Assembly: GCA_027063545.1 (NCBI GenBank)
Contig: JAMORN010000141.1
Coordinates: forward strand, 1-6,971
Length of the DNA: 6,971 bases
From: JAMORN01 sp027063545 [NCBI: bacterium]
GTDB taxonomy: Bacteria; JAMORN01
Direction: 5' to 3'
The notes under the pieces were generated by a model. That model worked only from the letters and a program-made list of their open reading frames with translations. It had not been told where the DNA came from and searched no databases. Both the position numbers and the translations under genes were made by a program. Positions 1,791-6,262 of this stretch are shown here, piece after piece; within the stretch, counting starts at the first letter, position 1, and every line of letters begins with the position of its first letter.

Positions 1791-1840
1791 TTTATTTGTA
1801 TGGGTTATTTATGGATTATTAGTAAACATGATAGTAGAGA

Positions 1841-1879
1841 GGGAAATGTTTGGAATTTTCCAGACATTTCCCTTTTTTT
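1841..1879 (+). terminator. Strong rho-independent terminator closing the ExbD/TonB-like operon
   Basis: The 5' arm at 1841-1853 (GGGAAATGTTTGG) pairs with the 3' arm at 1860-1872 (CCAGACATTTCCC). The 13-bp stem has a single G-T wobble and a 6-nt loop, and is followed directly by seven T. It lies in the 164-bp gap between the TonB-like gene and the ABC transporter operon, so it separates two transcription units that share a strand. The rest of the gap (1880-1940) is AT-rich with no firm promoter match. Confidence 0.93.
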
Positions 1880-1954: not shown

Positions 1955-3436
1955 ATGGAAAGAAATGTGAAATATTTAGTGCTTATGTTATTTGTGGTCA
2001 CAATATTATTTATTTTTATGTCTTGTTCAACAAATAAACAGAAAACCGAATTTAAAGTACTTCTTAGGATGATGCCAGCACAATATGAGTATTATACTCA
2101 ACAGGTTATTCCAGAGTTTGAAAAAAAGTATAATTGTAAGGTAACTGTTGTTCAATTTGAAAAAATGTGGGATATAGAGAAGATTTTAAAATTAGAACAG
2201 CAAAAAGATTCTGCTAATATGATAGGAGTTGTAAAGGTCCCATTTGAAATGACAAGAGATTTAGCAAAGAAGGGATATTTAGAATCTTTTGATAATATTG
2301 TTGGAAAAGATACCTTAGAACAGGATGAAGCTATATATTATCCATTTGCTTTAAGTTTAGGGTATGTTGATGGCAAACTTTATTATTTTCCAAGAAAATT
2401 AGAAACAAGAATTTTAGTATATTTAAAATCTAAGGTTGAAGATGCTGTGAAAAATTGGCAAAAGTTTAAACCACAAATTGATAGTATATTAAAAATAGAA
2501 AATGGGTATGGATTACCAAAGGGATATACACTAGAATCTGATCCTAATAAATGGGATTATTATGATGTCTTTGTAGTAGGATACTATTGGGCAAATACTG
2601 AATATAATGGTGTAAAAATGCCAAGATATGCTCATAGAGCAAAGAATTATGAAGGAACTGCTTTAGGATTAATAGAAAGAGCATATAGATTAAATGCAAC
2701 TCAAGATAGTATAGTAAAATTGTTAACTAAGCCAGTAGTTGATATGTATAAATGGGAAGCGTTATATGTGAAATATATTTATAATCCATTAATGTGGCAA
2801 GAAGGCTGGAGTGGTTCTGGAATATGGAATGCTTTCAAAGATGGAAAGGTGTTTATGGCAGAAATGCAACAAATAGATTGTTTTTTCTTACATGGTTGGC
2901 CAAATTCGCCTGAAATGATGGGATATGTTAAAAATCCTGATGATTTAGGTTTTGCTTTAGTACCTAAAGGAGTTTCTTTAGAACTTGATAAAGATGGTAA
3001 TCCAGTTTATACAGGTACAAAGAGTATTACAACAGGTGGTTGGTGGTGGGGTATTCCTAAAACTGCTAAGTATAAAAAGTTAAGTTATGAATTTATAAAA
3101 TTTGTTACTAGTAAGAAGATTCAAGCACAGGAAGTTGCCAAATATGGAATATTACCTGTAAGAAAAGACTTAGTGTTTAAATTACCAGAAGTTTTTGATT
3201 ATGGTTGGGTTGGAGAGATGTTTAAGGTATCGTCTGAACAGGTAAAAACAAATGGAACAACAGTTGTACCTTTAATAGCGGATTATCCAACTCTTGCTAA
3301 ATATTATATTGATATTTGGTATAAAGCTGTAGTGAATGTTTATAGTAAAGATAAGTCTAAAAAGATTAATGAAGCTGAGATAGTAAACTTTATTAAGAAA
3401 AATTATGAAGAGAAAATTGCTAAATTGAAAAAATAG
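1955..3436 (+). CDS. ABC transporter solute-binding lipoprotein (extracellular, family 1; carbohydrate type)
   Basis: This 493-residue protein captures the solute for the permeases encoded just downstream. It starts with a lipoprotein signal: basic residues 3-6, a hydrophobic core (7-21), and Cys24 in a FMSC lipobox followed by ST. The mature protein therefore would be lipid-anchored in the periplasm. Family features are a first strand FKVLLRMM, then VIPEFEKKYNCKVTVV (51-66), DLAKKGYLESFDNI (102-115), an NAFKDGKVFMAEM segment (292-304), GFALVPKG (332-339), and TTGGWWWGIPKTAKYKKLSYEFIKFV (359-384). The last is the usual 'GG-x-x-x-x-IPK, then cell-wall-side helix' region. It is longer than many homologues (about 400-450) and very rich in Trp and Tyr between 199 and 320, typical of sugar-stacking pockets, so an oligosaccharide is an inference only. 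AAGGAG at 1941-1946, 8 nt before the ATG, is a strong ribosome site, unlike those of the two permeases. It is the first gene of the operon; the next gene starts 6 nt after its stop, in the same frame. Confidence 0.9.
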   Translation: MERNVKYLVLMLFVVTILFIFMSCSTNKQKTEFKVLLRMMPAQYEYYTQQVIPEFEKKYNCKVTVVQFEKMWDIEKILKLEQQKDSANMIGVVKVPFEMTRDLAKKGYLESFDNIVGKDTLEQDEAIYYPFALSLGYVDGKLYYFPRKLETRILVYLKSKVEDAVKNWQKFKPQIDSILKIENGYGLPKGYTLESDPNKWDYYDVFVVGYYWANTEYNGVKMPRYAHRAKNYEGTALGLIERAYRLNATQDSIVKLLTKPVVDMYKWEALYVKYIYNPLMWQEGWSGSGIWNAFKDGKVFMAEMQQIDCFFLHGWPNSPEMMGYVKNPDDLGFALVPKGVSLELDKDGNPVYTGTKSITTGGWWWGIPKTAKYKKLSYEFIKFVTSKKIQAQEVAKYGILPVRKDLVFKLPEVFDYGWVGEMFKVSSEQVKTNGTTVVPLIADYPTLAKYYIDIWYKAVVNVYSKDKSKKINEAEIVNFIKKNYEEKIAKLKK

Positions 3437-3442
3437 TTTTAT

Positions 3443-4339
3443 ATGAAGATTTTAAAAGAGTATCTTTTTGAATTAATAATTATAGCCCCAGCAACTTTAT
3501 TTTTGCTGGGGTTTTTTATTTTAATTTTATTTTATCTTATAGGTGTTAGTTTTTTTCCTCAAGGTGATTTTACATTATCAGTATATAGTGCTATTTTTGA
3601 AGATCAAGAGTTTAAACGAATAGTATTAAGAACTATAATTTTTGTATTTATAGGTACCCCTCTTGAACTTATATTATCTATTATTTTTGCTATTCTTTTA
3701 TTTAATAAAGGTATTTTATCGTCTATTGCAAGGTCATTATATATTGTACCTTTTGCAATTCCCACAATAGTTACAGCAATAGTTCTTTTTGTATTGTTTG
3801 ACTATCCTGGGGGGCATATAAATGTTTTACTTCAGGGAAAATATTTTATATTCCCTTTTAAAATCATATCTGAGCCAATAAATTGGAGAAGTTCAGAATT
3901 TTTATCTTTATTTGTATCTATGTTGGGTAAATTATGGAGGGATCTTCCTATTTCTACGTTTATAATATTAACAGGATTATCAAATATATATAAAGAAGAG
4001 ATAGATAGTGCCAAAGTTTTAGGAGCTGGAGATTTTCAGATTTTAAAACATATAGTTATACCAGAATTAATACCATCAATTTTTACCGTATTATTTCTAA
4101 GATCTATAGAGTTTTGGAAGGAGTTTATCTTCCCATTTATACTAGCCCCTAGATATTATTTAATATCAACAGTTATTGAAAATTACTATCATAACTGGAA
4201 TATGGTAGATAAAGCAAGTGCAGTTTCTCTAATTCTGTTAGGATTTATAGTAATAACAATAATATTAATACGCTTTTCTATGAATTTATTAAGATTTTTT
4301 ACTTTCAGACTGGTTAAAAACTATGAGATTAAAAATTAA
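3443..4339 (+). CDS. ABC sugar transporter permease (MalF/UgpA-type, binding-protein-dependent)
   Basis: This 298-residue inner-membrane protein forms one half of the transport channel. About six membrane helices are visible: near 11-33 (IIIAPATLFLLGFF, the standard first helix of the MalF/UgpA group), 62-86, 97-119, 155-178, 205-235 and 260-278. The EAA loop that docks onto the ATPase is at about 185-211, with KEEIDSAKVLGAG and then HIVIPELIPSI; the key Gly is 194. The start at 3443 is 6 nt after the binding-protein stop. No other in-frame ATG occurs until residue 160, and this start gives the expected N-terminus. No AGG-type ribosome site precedes it, so translation probably depends on ribosomes finishing the upstream gene. 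A complete intrinsic-terminator structure lies within codons 15-25. The 3' end overlaps the next permease by 17 nt. Confidence 0.92.
   Translation: MKILKEYLFELIIIAPATLFLLGFFILILFYLIGVSFFPQGDFTLSVYSAIFEDQEFKRIVLRTIIFVFIGTPLELILSIIFAILLFNKGILSSIARSLYIVPFAIPTIVTAIVLFVLFDYPGGHINVLLQGKYFIFPFKIISEPINWRSSEFLSLFVSMLGKLWRDLPISTFIILTGLSNIYKEEIDSAKVLGAGDFQILKHIVIPELIPSIFTVLFLRSIEFWKEFIFPFILAPRYYLISTVIENYYHNWNMVDKASAVSLILLGFIVITIILIRFSMNLLRFFTFRLVKNYEIKN
3486..3517 (+). terminator. Intrinsic-terminator structure inside the 5' end of the permease 1 gene
   Basis: CCCCAGCAA at 3486-3494 pairs perfectly with TTGCTGGGG at 3503-3511. The 9-bp stem has an 8-nt loop (CTTTATTT), can be extended by a G-T and an A-T pair at its base, and is followed directly by six T (3512-3517). 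This is the full form of a rho-independent terminator, yet it lies within codons 15-25 of permease 1, 50-81 nt after the binding-protein stop. The encoded residues (APATLFLLGFF) are ordinary for this helix, so the protein does not require this base sequence. The codons used here (gcc, ctg, ggg) are GC-rich choices that are uncommon in the surrounding AT-rich genes. It would be expected to stop some transcripts after the binding-protein gene. The structure is seen directly; its activity in the cell is inferred. Confidence 0.75.
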
Positions 4340-5153
4340 AAATTTAATAATTAATTTTGGACTTCTTTTGATTATAATAGAGACATTGACTCCAATATAC
4401 TTTATGATAAAGTATTCTATTTCAGATAGAGATAGTATTATCACAGGAGGCGATGTAATTCCTCTATGGCCTTATCATCCTACATTTATGGTTTATAAAT
4501 ATCTTCTTTCAAGCCCTAAATTTATAGATGTTTTCTTAAATAGTGTTAAGGTTGCGGGTTTTACATTGCTTTTTGCTCTTATGTTAGGTGTTCCTATGGC
4601 CTATGGTTTATCAAAAATAAAAAGTGTTTATAGAGATTTTCTTTTAGTTTTTTTGATGTCTATAAGGGTGTTTCCTGATATTGTTTCAGTTATTCCTATT
4701 ACAGAATTTTTTATCAAATTAAACTTAGATAATACAATTTTAGGAGTTAGTTTAGCTCATACCCTTTTGGCTTTGCCTTATGTAATTTTTATTTTATTAG
4801 CAGATTTTGAAAAGGTCCCTCCAGAAATAGAACTTCAGGCGTATAATTTAGGAGCATCTAAAACAACAACTTTCTTAAAAATAATTATGCCAATGGTAAT
4901 CCCTTCTATTATAGTGTCTAGTATTTATATATTTATCTTGAGTTGGGATGAGTTTATTTTTAGTTATTTTATATTAGGATATGGAGAAATAGAAACTTTA
5001 CCAGTATATTTAAATAAAATGCTTTCATTTCAACCGCCTCAGAATATATTAATGGGTGTAGCAGTACTTTTAAGTTTGCCAGTATTTGTTTTTGTTCTTT
5101 TAATCCAAAAAAGACTTTTAATAAATATTAAAGAAGGGGCATTAAAAGAATGA
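4323..5153 (+). CDS. ABC sugar transporter permease (MalG/UgpE-type, binding-protein-dependent)
   Basis: This 276-residue protein is the second half of the channel. It has the usual features of the MalG/UgpE group: a first helix at about 8-28 with TLTPIYFMIKYSI, a periplasmic segment, then FLNSVKVAGF (71-80) leading into helix 2, and helices near 105-125, 138-160, 190-216 and 243-262. The EAA loop for contact with the ATPase is at 168-194 (EIELQAYNLGAS, then IIMPMVIPSI; key Gly 177), followed by SWDEFIFSYFIL (207-218), the counterpart of the common SWNEF motif. The start lies 17 nt inside permease 1 in a different frame, with no clear ribosome site, so it is probably translated by coupling. 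The end overlaps the ATPase gene by four bases (ATGA). Permease 1 and this protein are different subunits, so the channel is a heterodimer. Confidence 0.93.
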   Translation: MRLKIKNLIINFGLLLIIIETLTPIYFMIKYSISDRDSIITGGDVIPLWPYHPTFMVYKYLLSSPKFIDVFLNSVKVAGFTLLFALMLGVPMAYGLSKIKSVYRDFLLVFLMSIRVFPDIVSVIPITEFFIKLNLDNTILGVSLAHTLLALPYVIFILLADFEKVPPEIELQAYNLGASKTTTFLKIIMPMVIPSIIVSSIYIFILSWDEFIFSYFILGYGEIETLPVYLNKMLSFQPPQNILMGVAVLLSLPVFVFVLLIQKRLLINIKEGALKE

Positions 5154-6262
5154 AGGAAATGTTAAGATTGGAACATGTATATAAAACATACAATAATACA
5201 GATGGAATAAAAGATATTTCATTTATTGTGAATAAAGGAGAATTTGTTTCTCTTCTTGGTTCATCTGGCTGTGGAAAAACTACAACTTTAAAGGTTATAG
5301 CAGGTCTTGAAAAGGTTAATAGTGGAAAGGTTTATATAGATGGGAAAGACGCTACAAATTTTCCTCCACAAAAAAGAGATGTAACAATGGTTTTTCAGAA
5401 TTACGCTTTATTCCCACATTTTACTGTTTTTGATAATATTGCTTTTGGATTAAAGATGAGAAAGGTTAATGATTATGATATTGTAAAAAAGGTTAAAAAT
5501 ATTGCTTCTATACTTGAGATATCTGAATATTTAGATAGAAAGCCTTCAGAATTATCTGGAGGGCAAAAACAAAGAGTTGCTCTTGCTAGGGCTTTGGTAG
5601 TTGAACCTAAAATTTTACTTTTAGATGAGCCTTTATCAAATATAGATGCTGTTTTAAGAAGGACAATGATACTAGAATTAAAATCTCTACATAAAAAATT
5701 AAACACAACAATTGTTTATGTTACTCATAATCAACTTGAGGCTATTTCAATGAGTGATAGAATAATAATAATGAAGGATGGAAGGATTATTCAGGAGGAT
5801 ACACCTGAGAAGATTTTTACAAATCCAAAGAATAGGTTTGTTGCTTCTTTTATTGGAGAGTTTAAAATGAATTTTATTGAGGGTAGAATTGAAGAAAGAG
5901 TTGGAGATTTAAAGTTTGTTGCTTATAATGACATAGTTTTAAACTTAACAGACTATCAAAAGAGTAAATTATGGGCTTTTAAAGATAAATTTGTTATATT
6001 AGGGATTAGACCTTCTGATATATATATAAAACATCCAAGAGAAGGTCTTTTAGGTAATGATTTTTCAGGCGTAGTTGATATTATTGAACATTTTGGTATA
6101 AATAAACTTTTAATAGTAAAGATTAAGGGTTTCCCTATTACAATATTAGTACCTAAAGATTTTAATGTATCTGAGAATGATACCATAAGTTTTTCACTTT
6201 TACCAGAAAATTTTTATTTTTTTGATGTTGAAACAGGTGAAAATATTTTTTACGAGGTATAG
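5150..6262 (+). CDS. ABC sugar transporter ATP-binding protein (MalK/UgpC-type)
   Basis: This 370-residue cytoplasmic ATPase drives the importer and would act as a homodimer on the two permeases. All motifs are intact: Walker A GSSGCGKTT (37-45), Q-loop Gln83 in VFQNYALFPHFTV, signature LSGGQKQR (135-142), Walker B KILLLDEP (154-161) with catalytic Glu160, D-loop SNIDA (163-167), and H-loop His193 in YVTHNQLEA. The length and the C-terminal region (about 240-370, with GIRPSDIYI at 285-293) match the MalK/UgpC/MsmK group, which has an extra TOBE-type regulatory domain. The start at 5150 overlaps the permease 2 stop as ATGA, with a GGGG-containing ribosome site about 10 nt upstream (5131-5139); Met4 at 5159 is a less likely start. 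Members of this group can serve several sugar importers, but here the gene is built into one operon. Substrate cannot be read from it. Confidence 0.95.
   Translation: MKEMLRLEHVYKTYNNTDGIKDISFIVNKGEFVSLLGSSGCGKTTTLKVIAGLEKVNSGKVYIDGKDATNFPPQKRDVTMVFQNYALFPHFTVFDNIAFGLKMRKVNDYDIVKKVKNIASILEISEYLDRKPSELSGGQKQRVALARALVVEPKILLLDEPLSNIDAVLRRTMILELKSLHKKLNTTIVYVTHNQLEAISMSDRIIIMKDGRIIQEDTPEKIFTNPKNRFVASFIGEFKMNFIEGRIEERVGDLKFVAYNDIVLNLTDYQKSKLWAFKDKFVILGIRPSDIYIKHPREGLLGNDFSGVVDIIEHFGINKLLIVKIKGFPITILVPKDFNVSENDTISFSLLPENFYFFDVETGENIFYEV
6254..6257 (+). promoter_or_regulatory. Ribosome binding site deciding the start of the small lipoprotein
   Basis: GAGG, at the very end of the ATPase gene, lies 9 nt before the ATG at 6267. 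It picks this start over an in-frame ATG at 6222, which would add 15 residues ahead of an otherwise perfect lipoprotein signal and would lie within the ATPase gene. Confidence 0.6.

What the first reader, a model, noticed from the sequence alone, without database searches (positions are those of the whole stretch)
3437..3520. Complete intrinsic terminator hidden in the first codons of a permease gene, right after the binding-protein gene
Seen: a perfect 9-bp GC-rich stem with an 8-nt loop and six T lies within codons 15-25 of permease 1, not in an intergenic gap. The gap between the two genes is only 6 nt, so there is no other room for a control hairpin. The GC-rich codons used (gcc, ctg, ggg) are uncommon in these AT-rich genes and could have been replaced by AT-rich synonyms without changing the protein. 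Known: many binding-protein importers make far more binding protein than permease, often through hairpins between the genes, as after malE in enterobacteria. Inferred: here the control element has been built into coding sequence, leaving a short abundant transcript for the binding protein and a small share of read-through for the rest.
Basis: partly seen in the sequence, partly recalled or inferred. Interest (0 to 1): 0.72.

Follow-up and report, generated by a model that had tools for sequence, protein, structure and literature searches.

The report
Transcription stop signal inside permease gene
A textbook "stop transcribing" signal is written into the first codons of a nutrient-importer gene, with rare codons that chance would almost never assemble, so it probably lets the bacterium make much more binding protein than membrane channel; nobody has yet measured the RNA.

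Summary
Window 3486-3511 is a perfect 9-bp, 6-GC stem with an 8-nt loop, then TTTTTTATTTTA, inside codons 15-25 of permease 1, 49 nt past the binding-protein stop. It is not chance: none of 20,000 synonymous recodings folds as stably, and none of 3,000 reaches its terminator score (recalled formula). In 149,282 sampled codons of this genome, perfect stems (at least 8 bp, 5 GC) with a T tract number 2, against 0.05 expected. Five other coding-sequence sites resist recoding; two have good scores, one of them in the only other permease gene found directly after a binding-protein gene. Hairpins without a T tract are not in excess; two control DNAs show no clear overall excess.

There are no RNA data and no close relative; the one near homologue (51% identity) has no convincing terminator there. 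Internal terminators after binding-protein genes are known in Clostridia, in intergenic gaps. Best reading: a partial intrinsic terminator placed in coding sequence, a new variant of a known kind.

The parts
1955..3436 (+). extracellular solute-binding protein gene (start looks lipoprotein-like, by eye)
   Evidence: Pfam SBP_bac_8 5.6e-22, SBP_bac_1 9.3e-8; AAGGAG upstream, duplex energy -7.1
3437..3442 (+). 6-nt gap between binding-protein gene and permease 1; no Shine-Dalgarno-like sequence before the permease start
   Evidence: duplex energy +0.4, weaker than 82% of 402 starts tested
3443..4339 (+). permease 1 (binding-protein-dependent importer membrane component)
   Evidence: Pfam BPD_transp_1 1.5e-15; matched from residue 2-3 by the homologue L033/L055 (51% in its best segment), so the hairpin region is truly coding
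3486..3494 (+). 5' arm of hairpin, CCCCAGCAA (codons 15-18)
3495..3502 (+). 8-nt loop
3503..3511 (+). 3' arm of hairpin, TTGCTGGGG (codons 21-23: ttg ctg ggg)
3512..3531 (+). T tract (six T, then T-rich; 80% T, no G or C)
4323..5153 (+). permease 2
   Evidence: Pfam BPD_transp_1 3.9e-14
5150..6262 (+). ATPase of the importer
   Evidence: Pfam ABC_tran 1.6e-36
1836..1877 (+). ordinary intergenic terminator after the ExbD/TonB genes (yardstick)
   Evidence: 19 pairs then T-rich; -25.6 kcal/mol

Best explanation
The hairpin is a working, partial intrinsic (Rho-independent) terminator placed in the 5' coding part of permease 1. RNA polymerase coming from the binding-protein gene often stops at about 3515-3520 and leaves a short, 3'-protected binding-protein mRNA; the minority that reads through makes the permeases and ATPase. 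The 49 nt between the binding-protein stop and the stem leave room for a terminating ribosome (inferred), and permease 1 has no visible ribosome-binding site, so few ribosomes should sit on the stem when polymerase passes (inferred). Shown: the signal, its improbability, its place. Inferred: termination, its efficiency, and the protein ratio.
For: Complete hairpin plus T tract. Terminator score (d'Aubenton-Carafa form, recalled) 43.5, the highest of the 12 coding-sequence hits at -12 kcal/mol or better once one false ORF is set aside, and inside the range of the 18 sites outside called genes in the same sample, -39 to 61. Recoding nulls: 0 of 20,000 for energy, 0 of 3,000 for score (45.9 as measured there). 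Synonymous shuffling of all sampled genes gives 0.05 perfect stems plus T tract (mean of 60) against 2 seen. With a slightly looser stem (4 GC) hairpins with a T tract are 4 vs 0.45 expected, those with neither tract 2 vs 2.8. Energy-based scan: 13 seen vs 2.6 expected at -12 (12 without the false ORF), while pMP118 gives 4 vs 2.4 and E. coli K-12 26 vs 22. The other permease gene found directly after a binding-protein gene in this genome, L076 693-1697, has the second strongest coding-sequence hairpin, -18.8 kcal/mol, 0 of 4,000 recodings. Genes are purine-rich (mean 56.9%), which a 2026 paper links to polymerase outrunning ribosomes (PMC13323073, abstract and passages); in such cells a hairpin in coding RNA is free to form. 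Precedent for the function: PMC9045158 (abstract, passages, discussion section).
Against: No RNA data. The only near homologue (L033) has at the same site a weaker hairpin, -10.6 kcal/mol, matched by 6% of its own recodings, and score -16.8, reached by 13%, so no conservation is shown. Among 28 placed homologue loci (33 given, 5 not placed, about 8 placed poorly), none shows a hairpin plus T tract inside early permease codons; two have one at or just before the estimated start (L004, L014). The second case in this genome, L076, lies at codons 137-146, not in the first codons. The other recoding-resistant sites are mixed: L057 may have a miscalled start, and scores are low for L068 (5.0) and L167 (4.5) and negative for L066 (-21.6). 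Controls show small start-proximal excesses of their own: E. coli 5 vs 2.1 at -14 (maximum of 20 shuffles 5), pMP118 4 vs 1.4 at -8 (maximum of 30 shuffles 4). In PMC9045158 a cluster with only 24 bp between the genes was transcribed without a drop (passage). Prompt translation of permease 1 would melt the stem.
Confidence: 0.6

Rival explanations
1. The hairpin acts mainly as a barrier to 3'-to-5' decay. The whole operon is transcribed, the distal part decays, and the hairpin protects the binding-protein mRNA, as described for malE-malFG in E. coli. The T run is only the Phe codons.
For: Position just past the binding-protein gene; the T run is expected from the protein; malE precedent in the introduction of PMC5927463 (passage).
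Against: Hairpins without a T tract are not enriched in coding sequence (2 vs 2.8) while those with one are (4 vs 0.45); a barrier needs no T tract. The two roles are not exclusive: a terminator hairpin also protects its 3' end.
Confidence: 0.17
2. A translation-linked switch: translation of the first permease codons melts the stem and lets polymerase through, so the permeases are made only when ribosomes restart efficiently after the binding-protein gene.
For: Permease 1 lacks a ribosome-binding site and starts 6 nt after the upstream stop, as in reinitiation; the stem begins about 14 codons in, so an early ribosome could block it (inferred).
Against: The hairpin stays formed in the one minimum-energy fold of 3337-3560 that I looked at, so no antiterminator was seen; no Rfam family reaches its cut-off; purine-rich genes suggest polymerase outruns ribosomes.
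Confidence: 0.1
3. A chance or mutational palindrome with no function, kept because it costs little.
For: The one near homologue lacks a comparable terminator. Perfect palindromes in coding genes are known from nematomorph mitochondria (PMC6649704, start of abstract in a listing). A 1.57-Mb genome offers many places to look.
Against: Recoding and shuffle nulls; excess limited to T-tract hairpins; no clear overall excess in two other DNAs.
Confidence: 0.1
4. A translation-speed element: the hairpin slows ribosomes within the first membrane segment to help membrane targeting.
For: It lies in the first hydrophobic segment of permease 1 (translation) and uses rare codons.
Against: It would need neither a T tract nor so perfect a stem; other recoding-resistant sites lie in genes of soluble-looking proteins (L167 RecG-like, L068; names by eye, not searched).
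Confidence: 0.03

Closest known systems
Internal intrinsic terminators after binding-protein genes in ABC-importer operons of Ruminiclostridium cellulolyticum and other Clostridia (PMC9045158)
   Same: Binding-protein gene first, single stem-loop plus U-rich tract before the permease genes, no antiterminator reported, energy beyond -10 kcal/mol; stems of 5-13 bp were tested there.
   Different: Theirs lie in intergenic regions (over 50 bp were searched); here the gap is 6 nt and the signal is inside permease codons. Theirs were shown on RNA; here it is sequence only.
malE-malFG differential mRNA decay in E. coli (PMC5927463, introduction passage; the intercistronic REP element is recalled)
   Same: Excess of binding protein over permeases from one transcript.
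   Different: Acts by decay, with an intercistronic element (recalled); here a T tract follows and the element is coding.
ORF-internal RNA 3' ends in Borrelia burgdorferi, including potB and bmpB (PMC10319736, passages)
   Same: RNA 3' ends inside genes; one 148 nt into the permease gene potB, with a hairpin and rare codons just upstream; 151 of 994 ORF-internal 3' ends have a significant terminator score in that paper.
   Different: The potB fragment responds to spermidine, the gene follows an ATPase gene, and the paper leaves its mechanism open; the passages I saw propose no binding-protein/permease ratio.
Internal termination sites in Methanococcus maripaludis operons, such as afuA-afuB (PMC10450193, passages)
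   Same: Termination between genes of an ABC importer operon sets subunit amounts.
   Different: Archaeal, and in the intergenic region.

Membership tests
Intrinsic (Rho-independent) terminator | stable GC-rich stem with short loop | tested here: met
   9 bp, 6 GC pairs, loop 8, -17.2 kcal/mol
Intrinsic (Rho-independent) terminator | U-rich tract directly after the stem on the same strand | tested here: met
   TTTTTTATTTTA at 3512; on the other strand the stem is followed by CTAT
Intrinsic (Rho-independent) terminator | RNA 3' ends at the tract / release of polymerase | not testable with these tools
   no RNA data for this genome
Binding-protein/permease internal terminator (as in PMC9045158) | located after a 5'-end binding-protein gene and before its translocator genes | tested here: met
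   gene order 1955-6262, Pfam; stem starts 49 nt past the stop codon
Binding-protein/permease internal terminator (as in PMC9045158) | lies in an intergenic region (over 50 bp in that study) | tested here: not met
   gap 6 nt; stem is coding
Binding-protein/permease internal terminator (as in PMC9045158) | higher transcript level upstream than downstream | not testable with these tools
   no RNA data
Attenuator or riboswitch | alternative antiterminator fold or a known sensing domain | tested here: inconclusive
   hairpin kept in the single minimum-energy fold of 3337-3560; Rfam: 3 weak matches in the window, all far below cut-off. Unknown kinds not excluded
Intercistronic decay barrier (malE-malF type) | hairpin in the gap between genes | tested here: not met
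   coding location, 6-nt gap

The most novel reading that the evidence does not exclude
This organism, with a median gap of 10 nt between same-strand genes, routinely writes partial terminators into the coding sequence of downstream operon genes, mostly near their starts, so that synonymous codons carry a second message that sets the ratio between neighbouring genes. The permease case is the clearest of up to six such dual-coded sites in the roughly 31% of the assembly that I could read as letters. (Lowered from 0.30 to 0.28 on re-check, because one of the other sites, L066, has a negative terminator score and L057 an uncertain start.)
Probability: 0.28. Interest if true: 0.72.

Novelty: new variant of a known kind. 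Interest (0 to 1): 0.5.

Why it matters
If true, gene ratios in tightly packed operons can be set by synonymous codons alone. That would explain how genomes with almost no intergenic space keep unequal subunit amounts, would warn against recoding such genes, and would mean that terminator surveys limited to intergenic DNA miss a class of control sites.

Tried and rejected
Close relatives: none found. The own phylum holds only this genome in the set. The 'relatives' searches covered 59 and 386 genomes, this one included; those listed are told to share only its domain, and the best matches outside this genome were E = 6e-20 and 2.8e-26. The phylum of the L033 genome gave 1 of 296 at E 1e-25, L033's genome itself; its family, asked with the binding protein, 1 of 3, again itself. 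The genome-contig scan gave one locus, viral contigs none, plasmids 560 records, all under 60% identity and the 40 listed at 25-29%. So the wobble-conservation test could not be done.

Repeat-element idea: no second copy of the hairpin in the 185 loci then held; the 4 listed matches are all loci cut from the window's own contig. The second DNA match in the genome covers only the T-rich tract. Regulatory RNA family: no Rfam match near cut-off.

False leads: the L142 hairpin (GCCCTGC...GCAGGGC, TTTTTTT) lies in an ORF that my caller invented and looks like an ordinary intergenic terminator; it is in the counts and was removed. L057 may have a wrongly called start. L070 is in the counts but is not unusual under recoding (1,793 of 4,000). 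In the controls too, three of the start-proximal hits are caller errors when held against the annotation: L189 24920-25270 (DsrA terminator), L186 28328-28723 (between two genes), L195 40643-41218 (before the annotated start). ORFs came from a simple caller of mine (at least 100 aa, first ATG/GTG/TTG), not from an annotation, and ORFs that contain N were dropped.

Limits: the sample is 140 fetched contigs plus the window, 633,554 bases, of which 145,682 read N: 40% of the assembly fetched, 31% readable. The assembly is 83% complete. The terminator score formula is recalled, not fetched. The remark that 2 permease genes are among the 4 strongest hits is post hoc. One search was given 7 of the window's 8 ORFs (the cut one at 1-255 was left out). 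I did not test Rho-dependent termination, although permease 1 is pyrimidine-rich and a Rho domain is present.

Full report
What is there. The window carries ExbD and TonB genes closed by an ordinary terminator (1836-1877), then a four-gene importer operon: binding protein 1955-3436, permease 1 3443-4339, permease 2 4323-5153, ATPase 5150-6262. The reported hairpin is exactly as described: CCCCAGCAA (3486-3494), loop of 8, TTGCTGGGG (3503-3511), then TTTTTTATTTTA. It starts 49 nt after the binding-protein stop codon and spans codons 15-23 of permease 1; codons 24-25 are the T run. It folds at -17.2 kcal/mol and is the most stable 30-nt stretch in the operon, where the mean is -1.7.

It is truly coding. 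A homologue from a Spirochaetes metagenome genome (L033, 51% identical in its best segment; the same place is L055) matches permease 1 from residue 2-3 onward, and the first hydrophobic segment that the hairpin encodes (IAPATLFLLGFFILILF) lines up by eye with LSPAVLYLGGFLIIILF. So the permease does not start further downstream.

It is not chance. I sampled 140 contigs of the same assembly plus the window (633,554 bases, 145,682 of them N; 442 ORFs, 149,282 codons). The stem depends on rare codons: GCC 6.9% of Ala, TTG 9.3% and CTG 1.3% of Leu, GGG 13.4% of Gly. Drawing synonymous codons at genome frequency for codons 11-32 gave a perfect stem of at least 9 bp with 6 GC plus a T tract once in 200,000 trials; none of 20,000 draws reached the observed energy and none of 3,000 the observed terminator score of 45.9, while 0.27% had any score of 0 or more. 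Shuffling synonymous codons among all sampled genes gave 0.05 perfect stems (at least 8 bp, 5 GC) with a T tract on average over 60 shuffles, against 2 seen: this one and L057. The T run by itself is no surprise, because Phe is TTT nine times in ten here.

It is not alone. A looser scan (one mismatch, G-U pairs, energy limit) finds 13 coding-strand hairpins with T tracts at -12 kcal/mol or better, against 2.6 on average in 50 shuffles (maximum 6); in the first 60 codons 6 against 0.6 (maximum 2). One of the 13, L142, is an artefact of a false ORF. Recoding each of the 13 sites 4,000 times leaves 7 that no recoding matches: L057, L076 (position 408), L068, the window site, L167, L066 and the L142 artefact; the other 6 are matched by between 11 and 1,793 recodings. 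Of the five other real or possible cases the terminator scores are 21.7 (L057, whose start may be miscalled), 18.0 (L076), 5.0 (L068), 4.5 (L167) and -21.6 (L066); the window site has 43.5.

Controls. The same pipeline gives 4 vs 2.4 at -12 in the AT-rich plasmid pMP118 (196 ORFs) and 26 vs 22 in 250 kb of E. coli K-12 (208 ORFs): no clear overall excess. Start-proximal counts are somewhat high there too: E. coli 5 vs 2.1 at -14, pMP118 4 vs 1.4 at -8, each equal to the largest shuffle. With the L142 ORF removed, perfect hairpins (at least 8 bp, 4 GC) with a T tract are 4 vs 0.45 expected, those with only an A tract before them 1 vs 0.3, those with neither 2 vs 2.8. Palindrome-making mutation would not care about a T tract, so this favours termination, though the numbers are small.

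The second importer. The genome has five permease-domain matches and three matches to the binding protein's Pfam family. The third binding-protein gene, L198, runs to the end of the stretch I could read, and none of the five permease matches is on its contig. The two permease genes on C152 have no binding-protein gene next to them in the contig. Thus two permease genes directly follow a binding-protein gene: the window's and L076 693-1697, 24 nt after its binding-protein gene. Both hold a strong coding-sequence hairpin, and they are two of the four hairpins at -17 kcal/mol or better. By the formula 12/(442x441) that is about 6 in 100,000 by chance, but I noticed it after the fact, and in L076 the hairpin is at codons 137-146 with a poorer tract (TTATTTCC).

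Mechanism. The position fits a terminator that ends the binding-protein message and lets a share of polymerase pass. Permease 1 has no visible Shine-Dalgarno sequence (duplex energy +0.4, weaker than 82% of 402 starts), so ribosomes probably arrive by reinitiation and late. Genes in this genome are purine-rich (mean 56.9%; permease 1 46.6%, 2.9th percentile). A 2026 paper ties such bias to polymerase outrunning ribosomes in species that have Rho (PMC13323073, abstract and passages); a Rho RNA-binding domain is present here. If transcription is uncoupled, a hairpin in a coding region can terminate like one in a gap. The pyrimidine-rich permease genes might also be Rho targets, which I did not test. 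These steps are inference. Median same-strand gap is 10 nt and 74% are under 30 nt (315 pairs), which would explain why such a signal has to overlap a gene.

Against. There are no RNA data. L033 has a weaker hairpin at the same site (-10.6 kcal/mol; 6% of its own recodings fold as well) with score -16.8, reached by 13% of recodings: no sign of a conserved terminator. Of 33 permease loci given to the scan, 28 could be placed; none has a hairpin with a T tract in early permease codons, and two have one at or just before the estimated start (L004, L014). The estimated starts of about eight of these are unreliable.

Known things. Internal terminators that make binding-protein transcripts exceed translocator transcripts are established in Clostridia (PMC9045158: abstract, passages and discussion section), described in what I read as intergenic; that study searched gaps longer than 50 bp, and a cluster with a 24-bp gap showed continuous transcription. 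ORF-internal RNA ends are common in Borrelia, including one in the permease gene potB (PMC10319736, passages), and occur in E. coli (PMC7815308, passages). An archaeal importer uses intergenic internal termination (PMC10450193, passages). The result lists of my text searches named no report of a binding-protein/permease terminator placed inside permease codons; they are lists of titles and abstract starts from open-licence papers only, so this is weak evidence of absence.

Verdict. The most likely reading is a partial intrinsic terminator inside coding sequence that raises binding protein over permease: a new variant of a known kind, at about 0.6. Conservation and RNA evidence are missing.

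Noticed in passing
L167 3923-6040 (-), hairpin about codons 25-34: A gene that looks like RecG (by eye) carries AAAAGCCCAG...CTGGGCTTTT in its first codons, terminator-like on both strands (A tract before, T after); 0 of 4,000 recodings fold as well, but its sense score is low, 4.5.
   Followed up: partly
L076 693-1697 (-), codons 137-146: The second importer's permease has a 13-pair hairpin then TTATTTCC in mid-gene, built with rare codons CGT, ACG, CTC.
   Followed up: partly
L057 2865-4226 (-), nt 28-67 of the called ORF: 16-bp perfect hairpin plus T tract soon after the upstream gene, inside a called TTG-start ORF with a lipoprotein-like start (by eye); either a coding-sequence terminator or a wrongly called start.
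   Followed up: partly
L068 844-1956 (+), nt 118-149; L066 3946-4530 (+), nt 26-63: Two more start-proximal hairpins in operon genes that none of 4,000 recodings matched; scores 5.0 and -21.6, so the second is a poor terminator.
   Followed up: partly
L191 3752-5407 (+), nt 82-117 of the called ORF (E. coli K-12 pgi): The control showed a -21.4 kcal/mol hairpin plus TTTTCTAA in the first 40 codons of pgi; whether it terminates was not checked.
   Followed up: no
L033 4977-5060: The homologous permease 1 in the Spirochaetes genome has no ATG/GTG/TTG near its 5' end (frame reads LEKTIKAGNLFKDYLF); a rare start such as ATA after GGAG seems possible.
   Followed up: no
whole genome G000: No second genome of its phylum is held; genes are purine-rich (56.9%) and gaps very short (median 10 nt), a good setting to study terminators in coding sequence.
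   Followed up: partly
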